From assembly GCF_014333525.1 (NCBI RefSeq), contig NZ_JACSCX010000002.1:682001-746000 (forward strand): DNA of 64,000 bases, read 5' to 3'. Numbering within the stretch: position 1 is the stretch's first letter; each line of letters starts with the position of its first letter. Under the pieces are notes generated by a model, which was given only the letters and a program-made list of their open reading frames with translations, ran no database searches and had not been told where the DNA came from. A program made the translations under genes and the position numbers. This DNA is from Hymenobacter puniceus. GTDB taxonomy: Bacteria > Bacteroidota > Bacteroidia > Cytophagales > Hymenobacteraceae. Positions 11,657-32,900 of this stretch are shown piece after piece.

Positions 11657-11696
11657 ACCCTGTCCTTTTTGCCCGAGGGACCAACAGATTGCTTTG
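11657..11696 (+). promoter_or_regulatory. Late promoter element copy 1 (protease/capsid operon)
   Basis: ACCCTGTCCTTTTT starts the element and TTTG ends it at position 40. TGTCCTT occupies element positions 5-11 in all four copies and TTTG/TTCG positions 37-40. This copy differs in having the start codon 33 nt downstream and in overlapping an inverted repeat. Confidence 0.7.
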
Positions 11697-11741
11697 CATC
11701 GAATCAACTGGATCTAAGCCGGTTTCTCGATGCAAAGCAAT
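11689..11741. repeat. 15-bp inverted repeat spanning promoter and start codon
   Basis: ATTGCTTTGCATCGA (11689-11703) pairs perfectly with 11727-11741. The left arm contains the late promoter TTTG, and the right arm contains the ATG (11730) of the protease gene. It could be an operator, or an mRNA hairpin that hides the start. Confidence 0.75.
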
Positions 11742-13139
11742 TTACGTTTAATCTCCGCGCTTCAGCGCGGCTTGTGGTTTATCGAGGAGGGCTACGCGGA
11801 TGCGCAGCTGCCAGATATCAACCGAATTCTGGCCGGTGAAACTGTCGGCTTCGCCCGCGGCGACGTGCAGCGCAAAAATGCCGATGCTGCTGCTCAAGAG
11901 GACAGTATCGTATTTGCCGTTACGCCTGCCTCCGCTGCTGCCGGCGTCTTCCAGGCCAGCCCGTACCGCTCCTACGACCGGGCCCCACTAGGCTCGGTTG
12001 CCGTGATTCCGAACCACGGCATCATTATGCGGGAAGACTACTGTGGCGACATCGGCACCAACTCGCGCATCCAGCTGCTGCAGGAGGCCGCCGCCCACCC
12101 CAACATTGCCGCTATCGTCATCGACACCAACAGCCCCGGTGGTGAGGCCTCGGGCATGGCCACGTTCCACGATGCTGTAATGCAGGCCCGTACCGCTAAG
12201 CCGGTGCTTGGCTTCGTGAATGACGGTATGGCGGCCAGCGCCGGCTTTTTCCCCATTTCGGCCTGTGATGAAATCTACGTTTCGCACAGCCATTGTGGGG
12301 TTGGCTCCATCGGTTGCGTGCTGTTCCTGACCGACTCCAGCAAGGCTGACGAGGCCCGGGGCAACAAGCGCATTGCCGTTTACGCCCCCCAGAGCACCGA
12401 CAAAAACAAGGATTTCGCGGAAGCAGTAGCCGGCCGCCCTGAGCTGCTGCGCAACGGCATGCTCAAGGCCTGGTGTGCTGATTTCATCGGCAAAGTGCAG
12501 TCCGGCCGCGGCGAAAAACTCAACGCCGACGCCGGCAACCCCTTCACCGGAAAAATGTACTGGAGCGCCGACGAGTCGCAGGCCTTGGGCCTGATCGAAG
12601 GGGTGAAGTCTTTCCAGGAAGTAGTACAGCGCGCCCTCGACCTGTCGGCCGAACGCGCCTCAGCCGCTGCAGATCCAGCTGCGCCGGCTGCCGCCACCGA
12701 GCCCATGCCGCCAGTGGCCACCACCGAACCCAACAACCCTATTTTTTCCACTGAGACGATGAAACACACCCGCCTCCTGACCCTGCTGGGTCTATCAATG
12801 GCCTTGGAGACTTCCAAGGAAGGCACCCACCTGCAGGCCGCGCACCTCGACGCCATCGAAGGCGCCCTGGAGCAGAAGGAAAAGGCTGAAGCCGCCCTGG
12901 GCACCGCTACGTCAGCGCTGACTGCTGAGCAGACGGCCCACACCGCCGCTAAAACCGACCTCGCCGCGAAAGAGACGGAGGTAGCCACGCTGAAAGCCAC
13001 CATCGCCGGCTACCCAGTGGGCACTGAAGCCAAGAAGGAAGGCCAGGAAACCCAGCAGCAGGAGCAGGCTCCCGAGGTCGATGCCGACATGGCCGCCATC
13101 CTGCAGATGAAAGCGGATCTGGGCATCTCGAACTCGTAG
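11730..13139 (+). CDS. Prohead protease (S49/SppA-like) fused to scaffold
   Basis: A 469-residue protein. Residues about 85-310 are an S49 peptidase: PNHGII, then IDTNSPGGEASG, then GMAASAGFF with the candidate nucleophile Ser, then HCGVGSIG. Residues 344-460 are a Glu/Ala/Thr-rich coiled coil (EQKEKAEAALGTATSALTAE), a typical scaffold. The order protease-scaffold matches lambda C/Nu3, where the scaffold is also made from an internal start. It should cleave scaffold during head maturation. The capsid gene follows. The start codon lies in the arm of an inverted repeat. Confidence 0.85.
   Translation: MQSNLRLISALQRGLWFIEEGYADAQLPDINRILAGETVGFARGDVQRKNADAAAQEDSIVFAVTPASAAAGVFQASPYRSYDRAPLGSVAVIPNHGIIMREDYCGDIGTNSRIQLLQEAAAHPNIAAIVIDTNSPGGEASGMATFHDAVMQARTAKPVLGFVNDGMAASAGFFPISACDEIYVSHSHCGVGSIGCVLFLTDSSKADEARGNKRIAVYAPQSTDKNKDFAEAVAGRPELLRNGMLKAWCADFIGKVQSGRGEKLNADAGNPFTGKMYWSADESQALGLIEGVKSFQEVVQRALDLSAERASAAADPAAPAAATEPMPPVATTEPNNPIFSTETMKHTRLLTLLGLSMALETSKEGTHLQAAHLDAIEGALEQKEKAEAALGTATSALTAEQTAHTAAKTDLAAKETEVATLKATIAGYPVGTEAKKEGQETQQQEQAPEVDADMAAILQMKADLGISNS
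12759..13139 (+). CDS. Putative nested scaffold protein (internal in-frame start)
   Basis: An in-frame ATG (codon 344 of the protease gene) is preceded by ATTTTTTCCACTGAGACG, an AT-rich patch inside a GC-rich gene, which in Bacteroidota favours initiation. Translation from here gives a 126-residue coiled-coil protein, equivalent to lambda Nu3. The Pro/Ala-rich linker just before it separates the domains cleanly. No direct proof of initiation. Confidence 0.5.
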   Translation: MKHTRLLTLLGLSMALETSKEGTHLQAAHLDAIEGALEQKEKAEAALGTATSALTAEQTAHTAAKTDLAAKETEVATLKATIAGYPVGTEAKKEGQETQQQEQAPEVDADMAAILQMKADLGISNS

Positions 13140-13200
13140 CCTTCCTCCGCCTCAAATCCTAGCCTGAGTCACATACAACAACTTTTTACGCAATAGACGC

Positions 13201-14121
13201 ATGGCATCGAACCCCGATGTAAGCAAACTGATCGGCTACGCCGGTACGTTTCAAAAGAAACTCATCACGCAGATGATGAACGGCCTGCAGGTAGTGCAGG
13301 ACTGCACGCTCCGCGCCAACATCAAGGTGCAGGAGAACCTCACCAAAATGGTTGTCGGCGGTGAGTTGAAGCAGTACGACGGTGTGCGCGACAACAAAGG
13401 CACCATTGCCTATGAGCCCCGCGCTATCCAGGTGCACCTGGCGCAGTACGACCTCGACATCAATACCATCGAAGCCCGCAAAACGTGGATGTCGGAGGTG
13501 ATGAAGCCGGGCGTAAACCCAACCGACGTGCCTTTCGAGGCGCTGACCTTCCAGAAGGTTACTGAGCACGTCAGCAGCAAAATCAACGACGACACCGCCT
13601 GGGGCGGCGTTCGGACGGCCGGCGTTAAAACCGCCGCTGCTCTGGCTGACGGCTTCGGCACCATCATCAAGAAGGAAATTCTTGCTGGCGCCATTGAGCC
13701 GGTTATCACGGGCTCGATGCTCACCGACACGGTGGCCAAGATGGAAGCCATCTACAAGTCACTGCCCGAGCGCCAGCGCAAGCAGCAGATGACGGTGTAC
13801 GTGGCGCAGAACGTGTACGACGCCTACTGCGAGGACTATTCGACCCGCTTCAACCAGTCGCCCATCTACGACAAGTTCGGTCAGACCGTGCTGCGTCATT
13901 CGGAAGGCAAGGCTATCCTGAAGGTGGCCAGCTGGATGGCCGGCTCGCAGCGCGTGGTTATCACGCCCAAGTCGAACCTGATTGTAGGTACCGACGCGCT
14001 GAGTGACCTGAACCGCATCCTAACCAAGGAGCAGCTCTACCATGTGGAGTGCGGTATCGTCTTCGCCGTCGGCTTCCAGATCGAAGACCTGGAGCCGCTG
14101 GCCGTCAACGACCAGGAGTAG
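13201..14121 (+). CDS. Major capsid protein (HK97-fold candidate)
   Basis: A 306-residue protein directly after protease/scaffold, the expected size and place for a major capsid protein. Features include an extended N-terminal region, a helical spine around residues 180-205 (LTDTVAKMEAIYKSLPERQRKQ), the strand pair MTVYVAQNVYDAY, and a C-terminal SNLIVGTDALSDLNRI with a P-domain-like turn. It forms the icosahedral head. A strong hairpin lies after the gene. Assignment rests on size, order and general pattern. Confidence 0.8.
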   Translation: MASNPDVSKLIGYAGTFQKKLITQMMNGLQVVQDCTLRANIKVQENLTKMVVGGELKQYDGVRDNKGTIAYEPRAIQVHLAQYDLDINTIEARKTWMSEVMKPGVNPTDVPFEALTFQKVTEHVSSKINDDTAWGGVRTAGVKTAAALADGFGTIIKKEILAGAIEPVITGSMLTDTVAKMEAIYKSLPERQRKQQMTVYVAQNVYDAYCEDYSTRFNQSPIYDKFGQTVLRHSEGKAILKVASWMAGSQRVVITPKSNLIVGTDALSDLNRILTKEQLYHVECGIVFAVGFQIEDLEPLAVNDQE

Positions 14122-14157
14122 CCTGCAGCCTGAAAACGAATCCTAAAACTCACTGCC

Positions 14158-14187
14158 TACCGGCCCGCTCGATGTAGCGGGCCGGTA
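14158..14187. promoter_or_regulatory. Perfect 12-bp-stem hairpin after the capsid gene
   Basis: TACCGGCCCGCT and AGCGGGCCGGTA flank a 6-nt loop. There is no T-run, so it may act as a 3' stabiliser or partial terminator that raises capsid mRNA above the following genes. Confidence 0.6.
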
Positions 14188-14210
14188 TCGTAGTACCACA
14201 AAGCCCTATC

Positions 14211-14642
14211 ATGGCAGAATTGACCAAAGCCCAGCTGGAGGAACAGTTGGCAGTTGAAAAAGTAGCCCGCGCCACAGCTGAATCCAATCTGGCGGCAGCT
14301 GAGCAGGCTCAGCGTGACGCAGTAGCAGAACTGGCTGAAGTGCGCCAGCAGCTCAAGGAGTCGCACGAAAACGTGCGTCAGCTGGAGGCCGAGAATGGCA
14401 CCCTCGAAAGCCGTGCCATTGATGCTGAAGGCCTGAATGAGCAGCTGGCTGAGGAGCTGGCCAATGTCGGCAGCAACAAGCCCGCCACCGTGAAGCTGGC
14501 TGAGCGTGAGTTCGAGGTGACGGCCGGCAAGTTCAAGTTCCAGGGCAAGAGCTACACCCGCGAGGATGTGAAGTCCAACTCGGACGTGCTGAGCGACCTG
14601 GTAGCGGCCGGCGCCGGCATCCTGAAGGAGGTCACGGCCTAG
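14211..14642 (+). CDS. Coiled-coil phage protein after the capsid gene
   Basis: A 143-residue protein. Residues 3-90 are a long heptad-rich coiled coil (QLEEQLAVEKVARATAESNL). Residues 95-140 form a small globular end (VKLAEREFEVTAGKFKFQGK). It may be a head-associated protein, a second scaffold, or a tail/head connector. No family recognised. Confidence 0.6.
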   Translation: MAELTKAQLEEQLAVEKVARATAESNLAAAEQAQRDAVAELAEVRQQLKESHENVRQLEAENGTLESRAIDAEGLNEQLAEELANVGSNKPATVKLAEREFEVTAGKFKFQGKSYTREDVKSNSDVLSDLVAAGAGILKEVTA

Positions 14643-14721
14643 CCGCACCCTGGAGCACCCGAAGCGCTGCACTGTAACCCTCAGTAGTAGTAAAATTTTC
14701 TCAAGCAATTAAGCCTCAGAC

Positions 14722-15258
14722 ATGGCATACGAAATCGAAGACCTCCCATACGAGGAGGAGAATGCCGCCAACATCGGTGGTATGGCGGGCAGCATCTACG
14801 CAGCCCGCCCATCGTGGATCAAGACGCTGCCTGAGCCGGTAGATGCCGCCGATGGCGGCCTGACGGTCACTACGGCCATTGTGATGGAAACCGGCAAGAA
14901 GTTCATCGACATCTACGCTACCCGCAACAGTGCCGGCTTCGAGGAAAAGCCTGCCGGTGAACTGGATGGCAAGTCCTGGGAGCAAACCCTCAGCTGGTTC
15001 CACCCCAAGATCCGCGAAGGTCTGCTCAAGGTGCGCCAGGCCATAAACAATGGCCCCTGGATCTTCCTGGCTAAGGACGCCAACGGCCTGATGCGTATCG
15101 TGGGCAGCAAAGACCTGCCCGCCTACTCGATGGAGGGTGCAATGGGCCCGGGCACGGAGCCCAAGTCGCGCAACGGGGCCAACTTCAACGTGCAGGCCGC
15201 CAGTGGTCGCCCAGCATTGATATACACGGGGCCAATTCCGCTGACGCCAAGTGTCTAA
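14722..15258 (+). CDS. Putative head or tail structural protein
   Basis: A 178-residue protein with an acidic N-terminus (MAYEIEDLPYEEENAANIGG) and a beta-rich body (LTVTTAIVMETGKKFIDIYA, WIFLAKDANGLMRIVG). Position after the capsid gene suggests a head decoration, stopper or tail tube protein. No other obvious tail tube candidate is seen before the tape measure gene, so that is possible. It overlaps the next ORF by 8 bp. Confidence 0.55.
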   Translation: MAYEIEDLPYEEENAANIGGMAGSIYAARPSWIKTLPEPVDAADGGLTVTTAIVMETGKKFIDIYATRNSAGFEEKPAGELDGKSWEQTLSWFHPKIREGLLKVRQAINNGPWIFLAKDANGLMRIVGSKDLPAYSMEGAMGPGTEPKSRNGANFNVQAASGRPALIYTGPIPLTPSV

Positions 15259-15451
15259 ACCGGCCATCAGCCCACACCTCGCCGGCCACTATCGAGTGGT
15301 CGGCGTGGCGCCCGGGCGGGTACATACGCCCAGCCACGGCATCGTGGACCTGCGCACGATGGAGTTGAGCACAGCGCAGGAGTTGATGGCAGGCGAAGGG
15401 TTCCCGTACCTGAAAGCAATTAGGAAGCGAAACACTACTTCTAGGGCTTAG
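15251..15451 (+). CDS. Small conserved-type phage protein
   Basis: A 66-residue ORF with a GTG start overlapping the previous stop. The pattern HGIVDLRTMELSTAQELMAGEGFPYL resembles small proteins near capsid genes of Bacteroidota prophages that pair an IDL motif with GFPYL. Function unknown. Confidence 0.55.
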   Translation: MSKPAISPHLAGHYRVVGVAPGRVHTPSHGIVDLRTMELSTAQELMAGEGFPYLKAIRKRNTTSRA

Positions 15452-15468
15452 GCGCTTGGGTAAGAAAA

Positions 15469-15771
15469 ATGCTAATTGGTATAGCGCTCGGCCAGTGGTC
15501 GGGCGTTATTGTTTTATTTTTTATGTACCAGCCCCTATACCCGCTTCCTCAACTAGTGTCGCTGACACATACCACAGCGCTCGATATGAACCCCTTATTA
15601 TATTATTTGCTAGATGTCTGTGAAGGAGATAAATCACGTTTGGTAGCGTGGCTTTATGAGCTAGCTGACAAGGTAGATCCTGAGTCGACAACACAGAAAT
15701 TCAACTATAGACAGCAACTGCTTGACTTGGCTGCTGCTCTAGACTCTATAAGCACCTATTACCTCGGCTAA
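15469..15771 (+). CDS. Small hypothetical protein at the start of an AT-rich insert
   Basis: A 100-residue ORF. The N-terminal 30 residues are hydrophobic (IALGQWSGVIVLFFMYQPL); the rest is soluble and acidic (MNPLLYYLLDVCEGDKSRLVAWLYELADKV). The start at 15586 would remove the hydrophobic part. Base composition falls here and continues to fall in the next gene, so both may have arrived together. No family recognised. Confidence 0.45.
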   Translation: MLIGIALGQWSGVIVLFFMYQPLYPLPQLVSLTHTTALDMNPLLYYLLDVCEGDKSRLVAWLYELADKVDPESTTQKFNYRQQLLDLAAALDSISTYYLG

Positions 15772-15880
15772 ACAATACCGCCTGTTGCAACGCATTTCAA
15801 TTTATCTGTATGTGGATGTGGTTTTTGTATAAAATTTTATTATTATAGTATTGTATTTGCAGGCCGTATATGCTATGACA

Positions 15881-16552
15881 ATGAGATACTATGTCTATAT
15901 ATCCGATGCTAAAATAGAGCAGTTTTTTAAGCAACTGCCTATCTTCACAAGAATGGTGATTAAGTTTTCTATAAAATTCAATTTAAAGTTGATAGATATT
16001 GGAGTTGAAGGTAATGGAGCTGGAGATGAAAACAATAGATATGCGAAAGTGAAAGCAATTGAAAAATTTATGATAGATAATAAATTATTGGACGATGTGC
16101 GGTTTGGTGAGAAATTTATAAAAGGTTTAGGAGATTTTATCTGGGGCGATTTCAAAGAGGAATGGTATGAAGGGGATCTAGTATACTTCTTTGCTAATAT
16201 GTCAGGATATAAACTATTAATGATAGGATCTAAAGCATTTAGTATCAATAGTGTTCCTCTGGGAAGAAAAACAGGCGATGCCTTAGCTGATGTAATACAA
16301 ACAGATCTTCAGGGTGGCTTTTCTCGGCATGGTTACTATACGTCTAGAGCTTTTATTTCTACTGTAGTAAAGTTGTTGAAAGAAAATAACGCAATAAGGG
16401 AAGGTAGTCAATCTATAGAATCCTCTTTAAGCGCAATTAATGCTCACTATGATGAAAAAAGCGGGATACACCAACGAATGGAATTTGTCGCAAAAGTCCT
16501 ATATCGAGAGGGAGAGATAATCCTAGCGACGCCAATATTTGTATCCATATAG
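15881..16552 (+). CDS. DUF7019-like protein, AT-rich cargo gene
   Basis: A 223-residue protein with the N-terminus MRYYVYISDAK, which I recall as the opening of the DUF7019 family; this comes from memory, not a search. I start at 15881 because the family begins there. The middle has FIKGLGDFIWGDF and YFFANMSGYKLLMIGS, and the end ATPIFVSI. The gene is clearly AT-rich against its phage neighbours, codes for nothing structural that I recognise, and lies between the capsid and terminase operons. It fits a cargo gene; defence or superinfection control are possible roles but unproven. Confidence 0.6.
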   Translation: MRYYVYISDAKIEQFFKQLPIFTRMVIKFSIKFNLKLIDIGVEGNGAGDENNRYAKVKAIEKFMIDNKLLDDVRFGEKFIKGLGDFIWGDFKEEWYEGDLVYFFANMSGYKLLMIGSKAFSINSVPLGRKTGDALADVIQTDLQGGFSRHGYYTSRAFISTVVKLLKENNAIREGSQSIESSLSAINAHYDEKSGIHQRMEFVAKVLYREGEIILATPIFVSI

Positions 16553-16615
16553 ATCTTGCACTCCGCCTTTCATAAATATTTATTCCGAAATATTTATTTC
16601 CGTTACATAGCCTAA

Positions 16616-16655
16616 AGCATGTCCTTGCGCCTGCAATTCCCGCCGTTCACCTTTG
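16616..16655 (+). promoter_or_regulatory. Late promoter element copy 2 (terminase operon)
   Basis: TGTCCTT at element positions 5-11 and CACCTTTG at 33-40. Between these anchors it differs freely from the other copies, yet the spacing is identical. The ATG of the 16660 gene begins at element position 45. Confidence 0.7.
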
Positions 16656-16659
16656 GGGC

Positions 16660-17265
16660 ATGTCAGCAATTGCACGTTTAAGGGGATGGCTCAACTCAGG
16701 CCAGGACTACACGGAAGGCCTGGCCCTGGCCGAGGAGCTTTGCAGTAACCAGGCACTGCTCAAGCTGCTGCGCGCGGGCGCCAATTCGTTTACCACCCGC
16801 AAGTTGGGGGAGGAGCTGGCCCGCATCAGCCAGGCGTTGCCGGACGCGGCCGTGCAGGATCTGATCCGCCTGGTGGTGGCCACGGCCGCGCCCAAGGTGG
16901 AGAAGCCGGCCGACGTGGCGGCCCTCGAAGCCGAACGGATTGCCGGCTTCAAGGAAGCCAGCCAGCTGCATGCTCAACTGCGCCGCATTCCTGCCGTTGC
17001 AGAACGCTTCGAGGTAGCTAAGCGCATTAAATCCTTGTTTCGGCGTAACGATGAAATATGGGGCCATCTGAGCCACTACCAAGAGCACGGCCACTTGCCG
17101 CCAGTGCTGCCCGAGAAGCCCGCCCTCGACCTGCAAGACCGCGCCGTTATCACCCTGCGCCGCAATACCTTGCGCACCTACCTCAGCTCGAAGCGCGGCA
17201 CGCCCGAAAAGCGTGCCCTGTGGGCAGCTGAGCGCGACGATTTAGATAGGAGGTTGGCCGAATGA
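16660..17265 (+). CDS. Helical phage protein heading the terminase operon
   Basis: A 201-residue, mostly helical protein with charged C-terminus (KRALWAAERDDLDRRLAE). It is the first gene after a late promoter and overlaps the next by ATGA. No family recognised. Its neighbours suggest a packaging-related or regulatory role. The start codon lies 5 nt after the promoter element, so the transcript may have no leader. Confidence 0.6.
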   Translation: MSAIARLRGWLNSGQDYTEGLALAEELCSNQALLKLLRAGANSFTTRKLGEELARISQALPDAAVQDLIRLVVATAAPKVEKPADVAALEAERIAGFKEASQLHAQLRRIPAVAERFEVAKRIKSLFRRNDEIWGHLSHYQEHGHLPPVLPEKPALDLQDRAVITLRRNTLRTYLSSKRGTPEKRALWAAERDDLDRRLAE

Positions 17266-17861
17266 GCCTGTTTAAGACCTCCGAATTAGCCAAGCCAGCC
17301 GTAACGGCTGCCGGCCAGCTACGTCCCGCTGTGCGGCGTTCAGGCGTCAGCACGGCCCTGTTTGGCATTAGTAGGGGCCGCAAGGAATTGCTCCAGCATT
17401 TCGGCCAGTTGGAACCCGGCCAGTGCTACCACTACGCTACTGGCGGCAAGTGGAGCGCGCACGAGCTGCTGCAGTATGTGCTGGAGCGTACCGGCCCGGC
17501 CCGGGTTTACATCACTTCCTGGACTATCACCGAGGCCCCGCTCCGAAGCCTGCGCGAACTGCGCAATGCCGGCGTCATCAAGGAACTGACGTTGCTGCTC
17601 GACCACCGCATCAAGTCCCGGTGCCCGCAGGCCTGGCAGTTGGTGCCCAGCCTGCAGGCCCGGGTGCATCTTTCGAAATGCCACGCCAAGGTTACAGTCG
17701 TCGAGAACGACGAGTGGGCCGTGGCCATCGTGAGCAGCCAGAACTATACCCGCAACCCCCGCATTGAGGCCGGCATCGTCAGCCTCGACCGGGGCGCGGC
17801 CGACTTTCACCGTAGCTGGATTGAGCGTGAGCTGGCCGGCGACAAACCCTTTGAGCAATGA
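17262..17861 (+). CDS. PLD-like (HKD) nuclease domain protein
   Basis: A 199-residue protein with one phospholipase D-type motif near residues 146-165: CHAKVTVV (H-x-K) followed by SSQNYTRNPRIEAGI, the usual S-x-N-x4-R-x2-E context. Single-HKD proteins act as dimers and include nucleases such as Nuc and BfiI. It sits in the packaging operon between overlapping genes, so it may process DNA during packaging, though cargo nuclease is possible. It overlaps neighbours at both ends. Confidence 0.7.
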   Translation: MSLFKTSELAKPAVTAAGQLRPAVRRSGVSTALFGISRGRKELLQHFGQLEPGQCYHYATGGKWSAHELLQYVLERTGPARVYITSWTITEAPLRSLRELRNAGVIKELTLLLDHRIKSRCPQAWQLVPSLQARVHLSKCHAKVTVVENDEWAVAIVSSQNYTRNPRIEAGIVSLDRGAADFHRSWIERELAGDKPFEQ

Positions 17862-18139
17862 GCACCGACCAACTAAGTGAAGTGGAGCGACTGGCCAGCC
17901 TGATGTTTTCTGCGGCTGAAGTGTGCCTGATTATGAATGTGCACTTATCAGAATCTGCATTTATCGCTGATGAGCAGGAGTTAGATGAGTTTGGTAAGGC
18001 CATGCTGCGTGGTCGGCTGAAGCAGGAGGCCGAAGTGCGCGCCAGCATCTTCGATAATGCCAAGGCCGGCAGCTCGCCCGCTCAGACGCTGGCCACCCAA
18101 TTGATTCACGCGGCACACGTCGCTGCAGCTGGAGTATGA
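17858..18139 (+). CDS. Small helical phage protein
   Basis: A 93-residue helical protein overlapping both neighbours by ATGA. Sequence such as EVERLASLMFSAAEVCLIMN has some HTH look, so a small terminase-associated DNA binder is possible. No family recognised. Confidence 0.5.
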   Translation: MSTDQLSEVERLASLMFSAAEVCLIMNVHLSESAFIADEQELDEFGKAMLRGRLKQEAEVRASIFDNAKAGSSPAQTLATQLIHAAHVAAAGV

Positions 18140-18753
18140 GTACAAAACCAAAGAAAGCGGCCGAAGTGGCCCGCACGTACGCAAAAATCACCACCCAAAG
18201 CGAGGTCGATACCATCAACCGCTACCTGCAGGGAACGGTGGCCACCATTTCGCCCAAGCTGGAGGAAATGCTGAAGCGGCTGGAAACGGCCGCCGATTTG
18301 CTGCGCAAGCACGGTAGCCGCCTCGTAGTGGCCGCTAAGCTGCGCCACCTCTACAAATACAGCACGGCCACGGCCTACCGTGACATCGACGACGCTATGG
18401 AGGCCTTTGCCCCCACGACGCGGGTAAACCGGGCGTTCTACGTCGATCTGATGCTGGAGAAGATGTTCAGTACCCACGCTAAGGCCATCGTCGCCGGCGA
18501 CCTGAAAACGGCCGCTTCCGTGGAGAAGAACATCATGGCAGCCATCGACAAGTTCATGGGTGATGCCGATTCGTTCCCCATCGACGAGCTGCAGCCGCCG
18601 CGCTTCATCATCGGCCACTTCCCCGAGCTGGTGGGCCGCAAGCTGCCCGACAACTGGGAACAGCAGGTTAAGAACATCCTGCGCGAGAAGCGTTCTGGCA
18701 ACTTTGCCGGCGCTGAGGAAGCCAAGGTAGTAGGAGAGGAGGAGCAATTATGA
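18136..18753 (+). CDS. Putative terminase small subunit
   Basis: A 205-residue helical protein immediately before the large terminase and overlapping it (ATGA, 18750-18753). A basic N-terminus is followed by RHLYKYSTATAYRDIDDAMEAF, which resembles an HTH, and then helical oligomerisation segments. Small terminase subunits recognise the packaging site and load the motor. The call rests mostly on position. Confidence 0.6.
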   Translation: MSTKPKKAAEVARTYAKITTQSEVDTINRYLQGTVATISPKLEEMLKRLETAADLLRKHGSRLVVAAKLRHLYKYSTATAYRDIDDAMEAFAPTTRVNRAFYVDLMLEKMFSTHAKAIVAGDLKTAASVEKNIMAAIDKFMGDADSFPIDELQPPRFIIGHFPELVGRKLPDNWEQQVKNILREKRSGNFAGAEEAKVVGEEEQL

Positions 18754-20411: not shown

Positions 20412-20559
20412 GGCGTCTCCCTTCGGGCCGGGCTGTTCGGGGCTCCGCTTCGCTGCGGTGCTTACGCACTAAACCCCTACCATCCCTGACGCATCGTGCA
20501 ACGCGGGCAACCCATCGGCTGAAAAGGCCGACCGGTTGCCCGCTTTCGGTTTATGTGGT

Positions 20560-20844: not shown

Positions 20845-20895
20845 TATATGGTAGTCGAGTGACAACCAGCACGTTAACCCTCAAATTTTTTAGTC

Positions 20896-21396: not shown

Positions 21397-21402
21397 ATGA
21401 AA

Positions 21403-21445: not shown

Positions 21446-21478
21446 GCACTTGTAACCCTCAAATGCTCCGCTAAGGTA

Positions 21479-24624: not shown

Positions 24625-24626
24625 GG

Positions 24627-25463: not shown

Positions 25464-25464
25464 T

Positions 25465-25773: not shown

Positions 25774-25787
25774 CCCCTTCCTCTTTT

Positions 25788-26237
25788 ATGAATACGCTCA
25801 ATTTCATTCGTGGCATCTTCCGCCGCTGGTTCCCCGCGCTGCTCGCCGTGTTACTCTGCGCAGCCTACTACCAGTACACGACTGCTCAGCAGGCGACTCG
25901 CGCCGCACTGACTACCGCAGTCAGCACGGGGCAGCTCAACGCCGACAGCCCTCTGATTGCTGCCGCCCATAACACGGAAATCCCGCCATTCGGGCTGGTG
26001 ACCGGCAAGTTCATCTTCGCGCTAGGCCTGTTCTTTGGCGGGCTGGCCGCCGTGTGGTTTGTGCTGCGCTTCGTGGTGCCGGTGCTGCCTCGCTGGGCCA
26101 CCAATCCGCTGACCGGCTACAAGACCGCTTTTATGGGCCTGGATACTGCTGATCAGTTGCGCACCTTCAACACGGTGTGGCTCTGCCTGCTCGGCTACTT
26201 TGCCTTTTGCGTCCTCTCTGCCTGCCTCGTTTCGTAA
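25788..26237 (+). CDS. Putative holin with three membrane segments
   Basis: A 149-residue protein. Hydrophobic segments lie at about residues 14-27 (FPALLAVLLCAAYY), 72-97 (KFIFALGLFFGGLAAVWFVL) and 129-148 (WLCLLGYFAFCVLSACLV). Position directly before the endolysin, with a TAATG overlap, supports a holin that opens the inner membrane. It has no sequence family that I recognise. Confidence 0.6.
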   Translation: MNTLNFIRGIFRRWFPALLAVLLCAAYYQYTTAQQATRAALTTAVSTGQLNADSPLIAAAHNTEIPPFGLVTGKFIFALGLFFGGLAAVWFVLRFVVPVLPRWATNPLTGYKTAFMGLDTADQLRTFNTVWLCLLGYFAFCVLSACLVS

Positions 26238-26812
26238 TGCGGGCCTTGCTACTTGGCTGCTGGCTGCTGCTCACCAGCCTGGCCTGCCCAGCGCAGATTG
26301 CCTCCCGCGCTAAGCCGGCCGCCATTGAGTGTCAGCTGCAGGCCTCCGCCGAGCGGATGCATGTCCGGGAACGGACCGGCCGCAATGACGGCCCCGAAGT
26401 GGAGGCGGCGCAGAAGGCTGCCGGGGCCAAGAAGTTTGATCCGTGGTGTGGCTGCGAAATGTTCGTTCAGCAGCAATCGTGTGGGCTGCCTTCGCCCAAG
26501 TGGCCGGCCGCCGCCCGCAACTGGAGCCAGCTCACAAGCACCCGCACCTTCTTCATTCGCGGCTTGCGCGGCTCGGTAGACAGCGTGCGGCTGGGCACCA
26601 TTGTCACTTTCTACTATGCCAATCTGGGCCGCGTGGGCCACGTCGGCAAAGTAGTCGGTGTCGGCCGACCGCTACGGGCTGGCCGTGCGCCGCGCACCTT
26701 CCTCGTCAACAGCGGCAACACTGGCCGGGGCGGGGGCCGTGACGGAGCCGGAGTCTATAACGTCAACTATCCTGCCTATCAGATCTACGGCGGGGCAAAC
26801 TGGAGCTACTGA
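26237..26812 (+). CDS. Endolysin with signal peptide (CHAP/NlpC-type)
   Basis: A 191-residue protein. Residues 1-20 are a signal or signal-anchor (RALLLGCWLLLTSLACPAQ). The catalytic part has R-xx-GRNDGPEVEAAQKAAG, then PWCGCEMFV (candidate nucleophile C71) and GRVGHVGKVV (H135), the layout of Cys/His peptidoglycan amidases. It should cut cell-wall peptides in the periplasm. The signal suggests export independent of the holin, which would then trigger rather than gate it. Start chosen from the TAATG overlap with the holin gene. Confidence 0.75.
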   Translation: MRALLLGCWLLLTSLACPAQIASRAKPAAIECQLQASAERMHVRERTGRNDGPEVEAAQKAAGAKKFDPWCGCEMFVQQQSCGLPSPKWPAAARNWSQLTSTRTFFIRGLRGSVDSVRLGTIVTFYYANLGRVGHVGKVVGVGRPLRAGRAPRTFLVNSGNTGRGGGRDGAGVYNVNYPAYQIYGGANWSY

Positions 26813-26816
26813 TTCG

Positions 26817-26957
26817 ATGAAGACTCGCCTGCTAATTCTTATAGGTGCCCTGCTGCTGAGCAGCTGCATCACCCACTCGCCGACCGTTGCCGGCACCACG
26901 GCCAAGAAGGGCATGAACAACGTGCCGATTGTAAAGCGTGAAAAACGGCACTTCTAA
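26817..26957 (+). CDS. Small lipoprotein in the lysis cassette
   Basis: A 46-residue ORF. MKTRLLILIGALLLSSC is a clear lipoprotein signal with lipobox LSSC; the mature part is about 29 residues and basic. It overlaps the next lipoprotein gene (TAATG). It resembles Rz1-type outer spanins in size, though the mature part is not Pro-rich. Confidence 0.6.
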   Translation: MKTRLLILIGALLLSSCITHSPTVAGTTAKKGMNNVPIVKREKRHF

Positions 26958-27325
26958 TGCGTAGTCGCTATTTCATTCTGTTCGTGGCCCTGCTGAGCAG
27001 CTGCGCAACGCCCCGCATATTCGCGCCTGATCCGGAACCGGCCCCACTAATCGTGAAACTCGACTCCACCGGCATGGCGACCGGTATCTCCATCTCCGGC
27101 AAGATCAAAGGCGACGTGTACCTGCAGCAGGGTCAGGGCAATTCCGTAGCCAACAACACCAAGGCCGACCAGCGCGACCAGACGGCTCAGAAAGCCGACC
27201 AGCGCGACCAATCCGACCACAGCGAAGGCATCAAGAGCAGCCACGTCGTAGCGGGTGCGGTAGTGCTCGTGGTGCTTGTGGTGGGCCTCGTCTTACTATT
27301 TATCCGAACCCGGCCCGCCACATGA
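26957..27325 (+). CDS. Candidate unimolecular spanin (lipoprotein with C-terminal membrane helix)
   Basis: A 122-residue protein. The N-terminus ILFVALLSSC is a lipoprotein signal; residues about 95-116 (VVAGAVVLVVLVVGLVLLFI) form a C-terminal membrane helix. Between them is a periplasmic linker with the repeat KADQRDQ at two places. A lipid anchor in the outer membrane plus an inner-membrane helix is the definition of a u-spanin such as T1 gp11, which fuses the two membranes at lysis. It follows endolysin. Overlaps the next gene by ATGA. Confidence 0.7.
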   Translation: MRSRYFILFVALLSSCATPRIFAPDPEPAPLIVKLDSTGMATGISISGKIKGDVYLQQGQGNSVANNTKADQRDQTAQKADQRDQSDHSEGIKSSHVVAGAVVLVVLVVGLVLLFIRTRPAT

Positions 27326-28152
27326 GCCAAGCCACCATCAAAGGCCGCACCTATACGGTGGCCGGCACCTGGAACGACCTCACGGGCAAGCAGCTCGTGC
27401 AGGTCGTTCGTTTGCTTTTCGCCCCGCGTGAAGTGTTGGATCTGCGCATGCGCCTCGTGCTCGTGCTGCTGCAGGCCCGTTGGAAGCTGCGGCTGAGCAA
27501 GCACCTGATGGGCCTGAGTGAGGAGTGGGCGGCTGAGCTGCTGCCGCTGGCTGACTTTTTACTGGAGGCCAGCCAGCTCACCAAGCAGCTGCTGCCGCGG
27601 CTGCGGCCGTCGTGGCTTGGGCCCGTGCTACATGGGCCCACCGACCGGCTGGCTAAAGGCGACCTGGGCGAGTGGATTGAAGCGGAAGCCGCCTACCACG
27701 ACTACCACAAAACCAAGGATGTGCGCCACCTGAACATGCTGGTGGCCGTGCTCTACCGCCCCAAGCGCACGCACAAGCCTGATAATCCGGCCGACGATAA
27801 CGGCGACGTGCGCGAAGTATTCAACGGCAACACGCTGCCGGCGCGCGCGGAGCTGGTGGCGCGGCTGCCGCTGGCCGTGCGCCAGGCCGTGCTGCTGTTT
27901 TATGATGGCTGCCGGCGCCGCATCATCCGGGCCTACGAAGAAACCATCTTCGCCTCCGACCCTGAAAACCCAGGCAAGAACAAGGGCCAGCACCCACGCC
28001 AGGCCTTCCTAGGCATCGCCGCCGAACTGGCCACGACGCCTGACCGCTTCGATGCCATCATCCGCCTGCCACGCGGCACCGTCTTTTTCGACCTGGACCG
28101 CCGCATCAAGCAGAACCAGGAGCGCGAGGCTGAGCGGGCCCGCAATTCTTAA
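27322..28152 (+). CDS. Helical phage protein, tail assembly region
   Basis: A 276-residue basic, helical protein starting in an ATGA overlap with the spanin gene. N-terminal 20 residues are strand-like (ATIKGRTYTVAGTWNDLTGKQ). The rest has repeated leucines and arginines. Its place before tail completion and tape measure genes suggests a tail chaperone or assembly factor. I saw no frameshift site between it and the next gene. Confidence 0.55.
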   Translation: MSQATIKGRTYTVAGTWNDLTGKQLVQVVRLLFAPREVLDLRMRLVLVLLQARWKLRLSKHLMGLSEEWAAELLPLADFLLEASQLTKQLLPRLRPSWLGPVLHGPTDRLAKGDLGEWIEAEAAYHDYHKTKDVRHLNMLVAVLYRPKRTHKPDNPADDNGDVREVFNGNTLPARAELVARLPLAVRQAVLLFYDGCRRRIIRAYEETIFASDPENPGKNKGQHPRQAFLGIAAELATTPDRFDAIIRLPRGTVFFDLDRRIKQNQEREAERARNS

Positions 28153-28170
28153 CTTATAAGGTAAGTTCTC

Positions 28171-28656
28171 ATGAGCACCGACGACATCGAGGAGTATTTC
28201 GAGCTGATGGCTACGAAGCTGAAGGAAATCCGGCACACGCCGGCACTGCCTCGTTTCGTGCGCTTCAACATCGAGGAGGTACTCAAAGGCCTGCGCCATA
28301 ACCTCAACATGACCAGCTATTGTCTGCTGCTGGAGGCACCGGAGGGCGTTATCGACGACAACCAGGCCGATCAGTTCTGGGACAACCAGGTAGTGTCGTA
28401 CATGGTGCTGCGCCAGGTCGAGTTGAACGACTTCGCGGCCGAGCGGGCCACCGTGGCGGAGGCCCGCAAAATCGGTGTCAAGATCCTCACGCGCATCCTG
28501 TCTGATGAGCGGTTTGGTGAGGTGAACCTGGCGGAAGATCCGGTCGAGTACGAAAAGGTGGGCCCGGTCTTCAACAATGCCTTCGGCTACCGCATCAGCT
28601 TTACGGCCAAAGACCCGATCAGCCTGGCGTACAAATCGTCGGACTGGGATGCCTGA
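28171..28656 (+). CDS. Tail region protein, unknown
   Basis: A 161-residue acidic protein (IEEYFELMATKLKEIRHTP; WDNQVVSYMVLRQVELNDF; FNNAFGYRISFTAKDPISL). The order suggests a tail or head-completion protein. No family recognised. It overlaps the following gene by 8 bp. Confidence 0.6.
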   Translation: MSTDDIEEYFELMATKLKEIRHTPALPRFVRFNIEEVLKGLRHNLNMTSYCLLLEAPEGVIDDNQADQFWDNQVVSYMVLRQVELNDFAAERATVAEARKIGVKILTRILSDERFGEVNLAEDPVEYEKVGPVFNNAFGYRISFTAKDPISLAYKSSDWDA

Positions 28657-29143
28657 TACCAACACGTCGGAGGTGCTGCAGGTAGTGCAGCAGTGGGCCA
28701 AGCGGCTGGAGGGCATCCTCGACCAGGAGTTCGACAAGCTGGGTATAGGTCAGAACGACGACCTGCGCCCCTCGGTGCGCCACAAGGTGTACCAGATGGC
28801 CGGCGACATGATCGGCTACGACCTAAGCTTTCTGGGCTACGGGCGGTTTGTCGATATCGGCACTGGTAAGGGCAACGGCCGCGCTGAGCGCGACCTGAGC
28901 GTGGGCGGCATCCTCACCAAACTGGAAAGCCAGGACACCAACGGGCGCATCCTGAAGCGCCGGCGCGGCAAGGGCGGCCAGTTCAAGAAAAACAAGCGCG
29001 AGAAGAAGGGCCGCAAGCCGAAGAAATGGTACTCCCGGGCCTTCTATGGGCAGCTCAACCGGCTGATGGGCGTTGTATCGGCAACGATGGTGGAGTCTGC
29101 GGTAATTTCTGTAAAAGCTGGTTTACAGAATCTGAATGCATAG
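28649..29143 (+). CDS. Tail completion protein (HK97 gp10/virion morphogenesis-like)
   Basis: A 164-residue protein. The DIGTGKGNGRAERD stretch with a nearby basic helix (LKRRRGKGGQFKKNKREKKG) is like virion morphogenesis proteins (gpS or HK97 gp10 class). Start chosen where it overlaps the previous stop. The last 30 codons are overlapped on the other strand by the end of a membrane protein gene. Confidence 0.6.
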   Translation: MPDTNTSEVLQVVQQWAKRLEGILDQEFDKLGIGQNDDLRPSVRHKVYQMAGDMIGYDLSFLGYGRFVDIGTGKGNGRAERDLSVGGILTKLESQDTNGRILKRRRGKGGQFKKNKREKKGRKPKKWYSRAFYGQLNRLMGVVSATMVESAVISVKAGLQNLNA

Positions 29144-29897
29144 CAGCTTTGTATTGATTAAGTCGAGCCTCTTGAACTGAATCACCCAATATGTAATAGC
29201 CGAGTTCGAGTTTCTCTATTTTTTCTTCTGCAATTATGGTCCGAACAGAATTATTGTTACTGAGAAAGAAGTGATGGTTGCCGGCTTTGCCTAGATACTT
29301 AGTTAGATTGATACTGCTGTTTTGTGAGCTTGGTATCACGTAATCGTATACGTAGTTGTTTTCTATCTGCCAAGCGTCCTTTCTGCCTTCAATGAAGGCG
29401 TTCACAACTAGAAAATTGACGAAAAACAGTACCCCGAGTGTGCCTTCTTTACGCCAGTATCCGGCGTTTTCCGGAATGATAAGCTTCCCAATAAGACTGG
29501 AAACAATGAAATTCAGGAACATGAATCCGATAAAATACACATCCCAGTTTGTTCTCGCTTCAATGACCAATCTTTCAGTATCTGAAGTAACAGGCCGTAA
29601 GTTCAGGTAGTAGTAAGCGCCACAACTGATAATCACAACTACCAGTACAAACCATCCACTGATGTTGCCTAAACGCTCAAGAACGGCTTTACATAGCATA
29701 TGGAAGATCGAATTGATTAGTGTTACTACGACAGTAGACACGAGTGGTGCCGTCACTCCTTTTACTAGGTCTTGTATTGGGTAATAATTGAAAGCGTCAA
29801 TGCCAAAAGTTCCCCAATATCCAGTGTTATAGGCAACGGAGACCAAGTACAAATAGGGCAATATCCAGAAGGCTAATCGGTCAAATGAGATTTTCAT
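29055..29897 (-). CDS. Multi-pass membrane protein, antisense cargo gene
   Basis: A 280-residue protein with hydrophobic segments at about residues 8-25, 45-68, 80-98, 118-140 and 150-170, then a soluble C-terminal half (SSQNSSINLTKYLGKAGNHH). The gene is AT-rich, runs against the late genes, and lies between tail completion and the tape measure promoter. Its 3' end overlaps the tail completion gene. This is the pattern of a moron expressed in the lysogen. Superinfection exclusion or phage defence at the membrane is a guess. No family recognised. Confidence 0.65.
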   Translation of the reverse strand: MKISFDRLAFWILPYLYLVSVAYNTGYWGTFGIDAFNYYPIQDLVKGVTAPLVSTVVVTLINSIFHMLCKAVLERLGNISGWFVLVVVIISCGAYYYLNLRPVTSDTERLVIEARTNWDVYFIGFMFLNFIVSSLIGKLIIPENAGYWRKEGTLGVLFFVNFLVVNAFIEGRKDAWQIENNYVYDYVIPSSQNSSINLTKYLGKAGNHHFFLSNNNSVRTIIAEEKIEKLELGYYILGDSVQEARLNQYKAAMHSDSVNQLLQKLPQTPPSLPIQRPSAG

Positions 29898-29938
29898 AAG
29901 GCGTTATTTTGTCAAAGTTATAGCCTTATATCCTTAAA

Positions 29939-29978
29939 ACCCTGTCCTTTTTCCCGCCTCCAGACCGCCGCAGTTTCG
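29939..29978 (+). promoter_or_regulatory. Late promoter element copy 4 (tape measure/tail operon)
   Basis: The first 20 bases are identical to copy 3 and the end reads CAGTTTCG. TTTG is replaced by TTCG here. The ATG at 29983 begins at element position 45. Confidence 0.75.
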
Positions 29979-29982
29979 CGGC

Positions 29983-32900
29983 ATGAGTGTTCGGAAAGAT
30001 GAAGTCCAGGTGTCCGTCATCGTCGATGGCAAACAGGGCATAAACGAGCTGGGACGGCTCGAAATGGAGGCTGCCGAGCTACGGCAGCAGATGAAAGGCC
30101 TGAAACGCGACTCCGAGGAGTTTGCCCAGGCCTCCGAGAAATACGCCCAGGTGAAGCAACGTACCCGCGAACTGCGCGAGGAACTCGGCGTCACGGGCAT
30201 GACCATGCGCCAGCTGCGCACCTACTCCAATGAGCTGAAGCGGGAGATGGACAACCTCACGGCGGGCACGCCCGAGTGGGAGCGTCTAAATGGCAAGCTG
30301 CAGGAGGTGAATGGCACCATGGGCAAGCAGAAGGAGCAGATGCAGGGGCTGAGCAAGTTCTGGGAGCAGATCAAGGGCGAGGTGAAATCCTTCGGCATGT
30401 TGGCCGTGGGCTTCCTGGGCTTTCAGTTTCTCTCGCAGGAAATCGGCAACGTCATCAGCAAAAATGCCAAGTTGAGCGACTCCTTTTCTGATATCCAGAA
30501 GACGACGGGCATGACGGCCGGCGAGGTCCGGGCGCTGAATAAAGACCTCAGCCAGGTCAATACCCGCACCAAGGGCGACGAGCTGCGCAAAATTGCTGCT
30601 GATGCTGGCCAGCTGGGTATTGCCAAGAATGACATCCTCGCTTTCACGGTGGCCACCGACAAGCTGTATGTGGCGCTGGGTGATGAGTTCGGCAGTGTCG
30701 AGGAGGTAACCAAGCAGACGGGCGCCCTGCGCAACATCTTCTCTGATATCAAGTCGCAGAAGGTCGATGAGGATATGCTCCACATCGGCAACGCCATCAA
30801 CGTCTTGGGGAGTGAGGGCGCGGCCACCGGGCCCGTAATTGCCGATTTCGCCAACCGTATCGGCGGCGTCGGCATCAGCATGGGCCTGACCAGTGGCCAG
30901 GTGCTCGGCCTATCTGCCACGATGCAGGAGTTGAATATCAACGCGGAGCGCGGTGGTACCGCTACCGTGAAGATTCTGCAGGGTATGGCTTCGGAGCCAG
31001 CCAAATTTGCGCGTGTCGCCGGCATGGAGGCCGCTAAATTCAAGAAGCTGGTGGATACCGACCTCTACGGAGCGTTGGTGAAGGTGATGGAAGGCACCAA
31101 GCAGTCCGGTGCTTCGGCCACGGCCCTGGCCGGCATCTTGAATGACTTGGGCGTAGATGGCGCCGGTGCCTCGGAGGTGATGGCCAAGCTGGGCAGCAAC
31201 ACCGACATGCTGCAGGCCAAGGTGAAGCGGGCCAGCGGCGCGCTCAGCGAAACGTCGTCGATTATGGGCGAGTTCGACACCAAGAACAACAACTTCGCGG
31301 CGAAGCTGGAGCGCATCGGCAAGGCATTGAACTCCTCTTTCGTCAATTCTGCCATTATGGATGGGCTGGAGGGCATTGTGGATGGCCTCGACAGCATGAT
31401 TGGCAAATCTGATGAAGTGGAGCAGCTTACGCTGTCCTTCGAGCGCCAGAAGCAGGCCGTAGCAGATCTGGCCAAAAATACCGAGCCGCTTATCGACCGG
31501 TATGAGCAGCTGAAGGGCAAAACCAGCCTCAACAAAACGGAGCAGGCGGAACTCGACACCATCGTGGGCAAGCTGGCCGACACCATTCCATCGGCTGTAA
31601 CCGAGTGGGATAAGTACGGCAAGGCGCTGGGCATCAACTCCGGCTTGGCCCGCGAGTTCCTGGCCGAGCAGAAGGCACTGCTGCGCGTGATGAACGAAGA
31701 TGCCATCGAAGGGGCTGAAACCAAGCTCACGCGCATCCAGGGCAAAATTATCAATGCTACCCGCGAGCTAAACCAGAAGGATGAACAGGGCCGCACTGGC
31801 TACCGTCAGGAAGTAAATGAGGATGGTTCAACATCCTACTACCGGCGTTCCACTGGCGAAATTGCGCTGATGCGCGCCGCCCTGAAGCGCCTGCAGGAGG
31901 ATGAAGTGGCCGCACGTGGCATCCTGGCTAACCTGAAAGGGGAGAAGACTCCGGAGCAGATCAAGTCCGAAATGGATGCCAAGTGGCTGGCCTACGTTTT
32001 TGGTGACCAGAAAGGCCTCAAAGCCGTTGAGGAGCAGCACTTGGGCTTGCTGCAGGAGATTGATGAAAAAATCAAGCGCCTCACGGAGCAGCAGTTGGCT
32101 ACGCGTAGTAAGGCGGAGATTCTGCAGCTGAAGAAGCAGATCGAGGAGCAGCAGAACTACCGGCTGCGCCTACTCGGAGAGTTTCGTGACAAGGAAGCCG
32201 AGAAGGACGCGGCCCAGCTGGAGAAGGATAAGGCTGCCGCCCTGAAGAATTTCCGGGCGCTGCAGGAGGTGGCCATGCAGGAGCAAGCCAAGCTCCGCGC
32301 CACCGATGCCGACGCCGACCAGCAAGCCATCAACCAGCTGGAGGCCCACTATGAAACGCTGATGCAGCGGGCCACCGAGTTTGCCGCCAGCACGCTGCTT
32401 TCGGAGGCAGAGCACCGGGCGGCCCTGGCCACGGTGAACCTGCTGGCCGACACCCGCGACGAGGCCCGCGACAACCTGAAGAAGCAGCAGGCCGAAAAGC
32501 GGGCCGCTGAGGCGCTCAAATTCGAGTACGACCACGAAATGGCGCGGGTGAACCTGCGCATTCTGCTGGCCAAACGAAACCAGAAAAACGACCCCCAGGA
32601 GTTGGAGGACGCCATGGTGGAGAAGGTGGAGAAGCAGCGCGACTTCGAGCTGAAGAACACCAAACTCACCGAGGAGCAAAAGCAGCTCATCATCCGCGAG
32701 TCGGAAGATGCTATTGCGGCCATCCGGGCCAACGGTGCTGACCGGGCACTGGAGAAGCTGCAGGAGACTGTACGCGAGTTTGCGGGCTACATGCAGGACG
32801 CCGCGCAGACGATGGCAGCCTATATGAAGCAGCAGAACGAGAATGAGCTGAAGCGCCTGCAGGAGGGCCAGAACAAGCGTTTGCGGTCACTCGACCAGGA

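What the first reader, a model, noticed from the sequence alone, without database searches (positions are those of the whole stretch)
11657..29983. A four-copy phage late promoter that may make leaderless mRNAs
Elements at 11657, 16616, 22860 and 29939 share TGTCCTT at positions 5-11 and (c/t)nnnTTTG (TTCG once) at 33-40, with identical spacing but free sequence between. Each heads a late operon: protease/capsid, terminase, portal/lysis and tape measure. The end resembles the Bacteroidota -7 box (TAnnTTTG), while the normal -33 TTG is replaced by TGTCCTT. In three copies the ATG starts 5 nt after TTTG, where transcription would be expected to start, so those mRNAs may lack a leader. This suggests a phage activator plus the host sigma factor.
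Basis: partly seen in the sequence, partly recalled or inferred. Interest (0 to 1): 0.88.

Follow-up and report, generated by a model that had tools for sequence, protein, structure and literature searches.

The report
Phage late promoters with shared activator box
Four switches of identical layout in this Hymenobacter prophage belong to a late-gene control system that recurs in phages across the bacterial phylum Bacteroidota, together with one uncharacterised phage protein that is probably its activator, and the messages it makes probably often start exactly at the start codon.

Summary
In detail: four copies of TGTCCTT-N25-TT(T/C)G lie on one strand (0.09 expected). The promoter reading survives a wide comparative test. 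The element recurs, mostly 2-5 copies per phage at fixed spacing on one strand, ahead of late operons in Hymenobacter prophages, other Cytophagales, two Porphyromonas gingivalis phages, gut phage contigs and, in part, Polaribacter phage Leef. Some distant phages have another box (TGTCTTTT, TGTCGCGG, CGTCATAG) at the same distance. An unnamed ~165-aa family, A (window 7744-8241), goes with it: loci found by A alone carry the element in 21 of 21 close and 18 of 20 distant cases. A's own promoter usually joins a similar box to a normal TA at -12/-11; late promoters have C/G at -12. Half the elements follow a terminator-like hairpin. ATG sits exactly 4 nt after TTYG in 44 of 140, which predicts leaderless mRNA. 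The head-protease copy instead pairs the -7 region with the start codon, which could silence read-through RNA. Best explanation: A, perhaps a ribbon-helix-helix protein, binds the box at -40 to -31 and directs the host's main sigma to weakened -7 boxes. No RNA or binding data exist, and co-variation does not single out A.

The parts
11661..11696 (+). late promoter element 1 (head protease/capsid operon), leadered copy
16620..16655 (+). late promoter element 2 (operon with endonuclease and terminase subunits); ATG at 16660
22864..22899 (+). late promoter element 3 (portal operon); ATG at 22904
29943..29978 (+). late promoter element 4 (tape measure); ATG at 29983
7691..7726 (+). element-like promoter of gene A (TGACCTTT ... 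TAGGTTCG), with TA at -12/-11
   Evidence: an element-like sequence at this score lies ahead of A in 25 of 33 loci, against 3.2% of random stretches
7744..8241 (+). gene A, 165 aa, GTG start (start chosen by alignment): candidate late activator
8238..8870 (+). gene B, overlaps A by 4 nt, conserved, strand-rich by eye, probably a virion protein (inferred)
11688..11702 (+). left arm of a 15-bp perfect inverted repeat; contains the -7 TTTG of element 1
   Evidence: sequence, arms read by eye; part of the stem
11727..11741 (+). right arm of the inverted repeat; contains the ATG (11730) of the head protease gene
   Evidence: sequence; folding
11730..13139 (+). head maturation protease (phrog_53), first gene of late unit 1
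16660..17265 (+). first gene of late unit 2 (unknown, 201 aa)
18750..20411 (+). terminase large subunit in late unit 2
   Evidence: phrog_2
22904..23230 (+). first gene of late unit 3 (108 aa), followed by portal 23125-24624
29983..33606 (+). tail tape measure gene, first gene of late unit 4
22729..22778 (+). terminator-like hairpin with T-run upstream of element 3
   Evidence: read by eye
4007..40258 (+). likely extent of the prophage as held in IMG/VR (36,252-base record with the same A gene and first two elements)
   Evidence: offset 4006 (L096); only the first 14,232 bases of that record were held, the far end assumes colinearity

Best explanation
The four elements are late promoters of a temperate tailed prophage, members of a control system found in phages across Bacteroidota. 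Numbering from the host -7 box (G of TTTG = -5), each has an activator box at -40 to -31 (here mostly TGTCCTTTTT), a free spacer of about 18-21 nt, and a weakened host -7 box, (C/G)A(G/A)(C/T)TT(T/C)G. The phage protein A, perhaps a single-chain ribbon-helix-helix DNA-binding protein with an extra helical part, binds the box in place of the missing -33 contact and directs RNA polymerase carrying the host primary sigma to late genes. A's own promoter usually joins a similar box to a normal TAnnTTTG, so it could fire first and then feed back on itself; late promoters, with C or G at -12 and often G at -10, would fire only once A is present. RNA then starts 4 nt after TTTG, so many late mRNAs begin with AUG. 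Where a leader exists, as at 11661, a hairpin between the -7 region and the start codon would block translation of read-through RNA but cannot form in RNA started at the promoter. Shown by computation: recurrence, spacing, co-occurrence with A, base preferences, ATG position, upstream terminator-like hairpins. Inferred: binding by A, sigma used, start sites, role of the hairpin.
For: Window 4 vs 0.09 expected. 58 elements in 14 prophages, 0 on the other strand; TGTCCTT-to-TTTG gap is 25 in 54 cases and 0 or 1 at any other gap from 15 to 39. Hymenobacter: 115 exact elements in 48 of 120 genomes against 13 reversed controls in 12; 16 of 28 genomes with a strong A have 3 or more, 0 of the other 92. 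Loci fetched by A alone: 21 of 21 have a strict element downstream on the same strand, 0 strict on the other. 20 distant loci chosen by A alone: strict elements in 10, some box at the same register in 18. Two P. gingivalis phages, 4 copies each. A at -11 in 130 of 140 though not selected. -12 is T in 19 of 25 A promoters and in 9 of 136 late elements. ATG exactly 4 nt after TTYG in 44 of 140 vs 1.5% background; Flavobacterium johnsoniae starts often lie 4-5 nt after the -7 box (PMC6847099, passages). Terminator-like hairpin just upstream in 71 of 140 vs 1.9% of random places.
Against: No transcript, 5' end or binding data. Box similarity among 30 phages follows terminase and portal distances at least as well as A distances; the partial test for A given terminase or portal is not significant (r 0.10 p 0.10; r 0.12 p 0.07). 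Gene B is also found in all 14 prophages next to A. A has no significant match to any solved structure (Foldseek E above 1) and no informative Pfam, PHROG or NCBIfam match, so its DNA binding rests on topology. Two of 20 distant A loci (G127a, G489) show no late element; several distant boxes rest on 2-3 copies, while unrelated dyads on the other strand reach 3-6. In Leef the -7 box does not keep the exact spacing. In one prophage (G006) an element lies about 12 kb upstream of A. In this window's own 11661 copy the start codon stays mostly paired even in the short transcript (0.05).
Confidence: 0.68

Rival explanations
1. The elements are late promoters, but the box is read by another phage protein (for example B or an unrecognised early protein), and A is only a passenger of the same module.
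For: B is present in all 14 prophages too; co-variation does not single out A.
Against: B looks like a strand-rich virion protein with no sign of DNA binding (by eye). A alone retrieves loci that carry the element, relatives of A occur with it in Bacteroidales and Flavobacteriia phages, and A's own promoter usually carries the box.
Confidence: 0.19
2. A phage- or host-encoded alternative sigma factor reads both boxes, with TGTCC as its -35 and ANNTTTG as its -10.
For: Two boxes at rigid spacing are what a sigma factor would need; -35-like position.
Against: The downstream box is a variant of the host primary sigma -7 box with A at -11; A shows no sigma domain in Pfam; boxes differ between phages, in flanks within Hymenobacter and in the core in other genera, which one host sigma would not explain. 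Not every early protein of these phages was scanned for sigma domains.
Confidence: 0.08
3. The conserved sequence works in RNA (processing, anti-termination or translation control) and transcription starts further upstream.
For: Hairpins that include TTTG and the start codon occur in leadered copies; in 44 of 140 TTYG lies just before the ATG.
Against: Free sequence but rigid length between the boxes fits DNA-protein contact; half the elements follow a terminator-like hairpin; the -7 box resembles a promoter box; one layout serves both ATG-adjacent and leadered genes.
Confidence: 0.05

Closest known systems
Bacteroidota primary-sigma (sigma-ABfr) promoters, -33 TTTG / -7 TAnnTTTG (PMC6847099, PMC7366714, PMC9723704: passages)
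   Same: A at -11, TTTG at -8 to -5, start predicted 4 nt later
   Different: -12 T mostly replaced by C or G, G common at -10, -33 box replaced by the TGTCC box
Phage T4 middle promoters with MotA box (recalled)
   Same: an activator box takes the place of the -35 box while the -10 box is read by the host sigma; several copies per phage
   Different: box sequence and position differ; no likeness of A to MotA was found, and no AsiA-like partner was sought
Phage Mu late promoters with activator C / Mor (recalled)
   Same: a small phage protein made before the late phase switches on several late operons of one strand
   Different: no Mor model among the Pfam matches of A; the box here is asymmetric and overlaps -35
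TraY of F plasmid, tandem ribbon-helix-helix (fold recalled; chains of PDB 9f0x, 9f0y, 9f0z, 9f10 taken to be TraY by elimination)
   Same: strand-helix-helix twice in one chain; top two Foldseek rows for the N-terminal 103 residues
   Different: E-values above 1, Z 2.3-3.1 and tied with unrelated chains; A has a further C-terminal helical part
T4 gene e / soc / 49 hairpins (recalled)
   Same: start codon hidden in read-through RNA and free in RNA started inside the hairpin
   Different: here inferred from sequence and folding only

Membership tests
Bacteroidota primary-sigma promoter | T at -12 and A at -11 of the -7 box | tested here: not met
   A at -11 in 130 of 140 but T at -12 in only 9 of 136 late elements; 19 of 25 A promoters have TA
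Bacteroidota primary-sigma promoter | start site 4-5 nt after the -7 box | not testable with these tools
   no RNA data; ATG position fits
Activator-dependent phage late/middle promoter | conserved box at fixed spacing upstream of a weak -10/-7 box, repeated before late operons | tested here: met
Activator-dependent phage late/middle promoter | dependence on a phage protein that binds the box | not testable with these tools
   needs binding and deletion experiments
Mor/C family of Mu activators | Mor domain in the activator | tested here: inconclusive
   no Mor model among the Pfam matches of 14 A members up to E 1; distant likeness not excluded
Sigma factor (A as a phage sigma) | a sigma-70 region 2 or 4 domain detectable by Pfam | tested here: not met
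   no such Pfam match in 14 A members up to E 1; one of 22 members had a stray NCBIfam sigma-70 match at best E 0.025
Ribbon-helix-helix (TraY-like) | two strand-helix-helix units forming one two-strand ribbon | tested here: inconclusive
   model has strands 2-7 and 57-62, each followed by two helices; TraY-type chains are Foldseek ranks 1-2 of 13 for the N-terminal part (E 1.8, 2.8) and ranks 2, 5 and 11 of 17 for the whole; Z 2.3-3.1, tied with unrelated rows
Leaderless mRNA | AUG at or almost at the 5' end | not testable with these tools
   predicted only (PMC6847099)

The most novel reading that the evidence does not exclude
A phylum-wide phage system: a new family of single-chain ribbon-helix-helix activators, each reading its own phage's box at -40 to -31, steers the Bacteroidota primary sigma to purposely weakened -7 boxes, with a two-step design (activator gene: box plus good -7; late genes: box plus bad -7), leaderless late mRNAs, and promoter-overlapping hairpins or terminators that silence any transcript not started at the late promoter.
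Probability: 0.42. Interest if true: 0.86.

Novelty: new variant of a known kind. Interest (0 to 1): 0.77.

Why it matters
In the listings and passages of my nine searches of open papers I saw no described late promoter or late activator for Bacteroidota phages; some of these searches were narrow and most subscription papers are not in that library. If true, these promoters mark late operons in phages of gut, mouth, soil and sea Bacteroidota, give an unknown gene family a likely task, offer phage-specific activator/promoter pairs for expression in bacteria where few tools exist, and make leaderless translation directly testable in a phylum that does without Shine-Dalgarno sequences.

Tried and rejected
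Co-variation to prove that A reads the box: Mantel r with box distance 0.59 for A, 0.73 terminase, 0.78 portal, 0.53 protease, over 30 phages; partial A given terminase 0.10 (p 0.10), given portal 0.12 (p 0.07), given protease 0.45 (p 0.0005); terminase and portal keep r 0.54 and 0.64 given A. So A is not singled out.

Named fold for A: no PDB sequence match up to E 10 and no significant PDB fold match for the whole model or its first 103 residues; the only significant predicted-structure match is Polaribacter phage Leef_1 (E 2.5e-7, TM 0.75-0.78), itself unknown. Weak PHROG matches of single members (best E 0.0039; phrog_21888 in 5 of 14, best E 0.012) name nothing.

A known gut phage as relative of the gut loci: the DNA search with L178 found only two unannotated fecal records; hankyphage was not compared directly. 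Passages of PMC12135933, PMC10367356, PMC9723704 and PMC7366714 were read for phage promoter maps; none seen.

Sigma-54 and ECF readings of the boxes were considered from memory and dropped because neither fits ANNTTTG.

Limits of counts: the 12 prophages from other genomes used were picked because they had element clusters. The 21 loci are about 17 distinct phages, 11 of them not among the 14 (my reading of contig lengths and equal sequences). The 140 elements were required to have [TC]GTCCTT, or the phage's own box found on the same data, and TTYG, so those columns are fixed by selection; G127a and G489 gave none. The first ATG is in any frame. G133 was left out. Some of the 25 element-like A promoters may be chance. 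The lists were typed. With a looser box, 5 of the 20 distant loci have one match on the other strand.
Full report
What was checked. The four elements exist as described. TGTCCTT-N25-TTYG occurs four times in the 64-kb window, all on the + strand; 100 shuffled windows give 0.09 on average and never more than one. Downstream genes are a head maturation protease (11730), an operon with endonuclease and terminase (16660 onward), the portal operon (22904 onward) and the tape measure (29983) by PHROGs. Many of the other genes scanned had no family. In three copies the ATG follows TTYG after 4 nt; the 11661 copy has its ATG 33 nt after TTTG.

Recurrence. The same genome holds a second prophage with four more strict copies on one strand. 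In 120 Hymenobacter-genus genomes the exact form TGTCCTTTTT-N22-TTTG occurs 115 times in 48 genomes, against 13 times in 12 genomes for the reversed pattern. Fourteen prophages (the two here, twelve from eleven other genomes picked because they had clusters, one of them of another genus) hold 58 copies, 3-5 each, none on the other strand. The gap from TGTCCTT to TTTG is 25 in 54 cases; every other gap from 15 to 39 has 0 or 1.

Gene A. All-against-all comparison of the 14 prophages (BLAST, E 1e-6, frames of 50 aa or more) shows several structural families in all, and two families in all that lie together just before the head genes: A (window 7744-8241, GTG start, 165 aa) and B (8238-8870). Elements are mostly downstream of A; in G006 one lies about 12 kb upstream and in G132 one lies between A and B. 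B is strand-rich by eye and resembles a virion protein; A is mostly helical. A has no informative Pfam, PHROG or NCBIfam match. Scans with A alone returned 9 genome and 12 viral loci; 21 of 21 have at least one strict element downstream on the same strand within the fetched DNA and no strict one on the other. About 17 are distinct phages and 11 of these had not been picked by element. By genome, 16 of 28 genomes with a strong A (E below 1e-20) have three or more exact elements, against 0 of the other 92. By my reading there are 23 clusters of two or more; 19 have A on the same contig, and 4 lie on contigs of fragmented genomes that have A elsewhere.

Distant phages. A occurs in 43 of 390 genomes drawn from the order. 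I fetched 20 distant loci chosen by A only. Ten have strict elements, none on the other strand. A de novo count of six-base words at fixed distance from TTYG found other boxes at the same register: TGTCTTTT (4, 4 and 3 copies in three loci), GGGTGTCGCGG (5 copies), CGTCATAG/TGTCATAG (3), CGTCCTA (3 and 2), TGTCCTGTAT (2). In all, 18 of 20 show a box; G127a and G489 do not. The long shared boxes are secure; those with 2-3 copies are weak, since unrelated dyads on the other strand reach 3-6 copies. Two P. gingivalis phage records hold four GTCCTT...TTYG copies each, ahead of prohead protease, the portal operon, the neck or tape-measure operon, and a gene of unknown function before tail genes; one has in addition an opposite-strand match to the looser pattern. 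Fecal record MT835542 has three GTCCTTTAT copies and one GTCCTAT copy. Gut contigs L178, L181 and L187 have three, three and two GTCCT copies, of which one each in L178 and L181 lies upstream of A and may be chance. Polaribacter phage Leef_1 has GTCCTTTT ahead of 6 of 13 gene starts inspected, protease/capsid among them, but its -7 box is at a less exact distance (read by eye). Their A proteins are linked to the family by profile comparison: P. gingivalis probability 95.0, gut 98.4, Leef 97.9.

Anatomy. Over 140 elements in 32 loci, the third base before TTYG is A in 130, although it was not selected. In Flavobacterium johnsoniae many starts lie 4-5 nt after the -7 box, with T at -12, A at -11, G at -5, and G almost never at -10 or -9 (PMC6847099, passages); in that numbering the box spans -40 to -31. 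Late elements carry C or G at -12 in 119 of 136, T in 9; G at -10 in 63 of 136. Ahead of A itself an element-like sequence scores 8.5 or more in 25 of 33 loci (3.2% of random stretches do), and 19 of these 25 have T at -12, which was not part of the score; the window's is at 7691-7726. In two phages (G065, G006) that promoter looks like a plain host promoter, GTACTTTG ... TAAGTTTG. ATG (any frame) lies exactly 4 nt after TTYG in 44 of 140, 3-5 nt in 56, against 1.5% and 5.1% of all 13,093 TTYG on the same strand of the same loci. Leaderless mRNAs are reported as 5.5% in Flavobacterium psychrophilum, and leaders under 10 nt as about 3.7% in Bacteroides thetaiotaomicron (PMC9723704, PMC7366714, passages). 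A terminator-like hairpin whose T-run lies within 32 nt upstream is found for 71 of 140 elements, against 1.9% of random places.

Hairpins. Among 74 elements without an ATG within 7 nt, stems of 5 bp or more whose left arm starts at one of the four TTYG bases or the next two occur in 19-35%, against 3-4% after shuffling; for the 64 ATG-adjacent ones the figures are 0-12% against 3-6%. In 23 of 73 leadered elements the start codon is almost wholly paired (unpaired probability at most 0.05) in RNA that reads through from upstream, against 2 of 73 in RNA starting at the predicted +1 and 0 of 73 for shuffled upstream sequence; the means are 0.37, 0.50 and 0.43. In a fixed register over 42 elements, pairing exceeds re-dealing of arms at positions 4, 6, 7 and 8 after TTYG, is borderline at 5, and shows no excess at the one variable TTYG base (related phages are not independent). 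The window copy has a 15-bp perfect repeat, 11688-11702 with 11727-11741, that joins the -7 box to the ATG; here the short transcript also folds (0.05). Two elements (G100 at 32792, G053c7 at 30954) have the -7 box in the left arm of what looks like a terminator (by eye). I infer that these structures shut off transcripts that did not start at the late promoter, as recalled for T4 genes e, soc and 49.

Protein A. AlphaFold2 gives mean pLDDT 85.4 (pTM 0.76) with two six-residue strands, 2-7 and 57-62, each followed by helices, then a long helix and two more. The first 103 residues alone give the same order at pLDDT 76.7. F-plasmid relaxosome chains that I take to be TraY by elimination are the top two Foldseek rows for this part, at E 1.8 and 2.8, and ranks 2, 5 and 11 of 17 for the whole; VIA-align gives Z 2.3-3.1, tied with unrelated chains such as PpnN. 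This suggests a single-chain ribbon-helix-helix but does not prove it. An asymmetric box would suit a single-chain binder.

Against. Box similarity does not track A better than terminase or portal. No experiment exists. B is not excluded. Leef's spacing and two box-less loci are unexplained.

Verdict. The elements are real and, at about 0.9, late promoters; A as their activator about 0.7; leaderless start for the ATG-adjacent copies about 0.7; the read-through lock about 0.5. The kind of system (a phage activator box in place of -35) is known elsewhere from memory; this family, its breadth and its two-step -7 design were not seen in the papers I could search.

Noticed in passing
L012 8026 and 12411 (G000:C8:498026 and 502411): Two further TGTCCTTTAC ... 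TTTG matches 4.4 kb apart on one strand of another contig, next to genes that match phage families of unknown function (phrog_18374, phrog_20966); perhaps a different phage or a satellite using the same promoter.
   Followed up: partly
window 40261-40851: Serine recombinase/resolvase right after the tail genes; found in 13 of the 14 prophages and 73-76% identical in five of them, where structural genes are mostly 25-50%; in several phages an element follows it.
   Followed up: no
window 40878-43622: Large protein with leucine-rich repeats, Roc GTPase and COR domains just beyond the prophage end; role unknown.
   Followed up: no
G000:C10:801341-829282 (loci L009-L011): A second, distinct prophage in the same genome with its own A (23% identical to the window's) and the same box; the two might cross-activate.
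   Followed up: partly
L189 10115-10585, L190 10317-10790, L188 29520-29993: Annotated 'hypothetical protein' genes of two P. gingivalis phages and Polaribacter phage Leef_1 belong to the A family by profile comparison.
   Followed up: yes
elements G100 32792 (L169) and G053c7 30954 (L171): The -7 box of these promoters lies in the left arm of a terminator-like hairpin, so RNA coming from upstream might stop there while RNA started there would not.
   Followed up: partly
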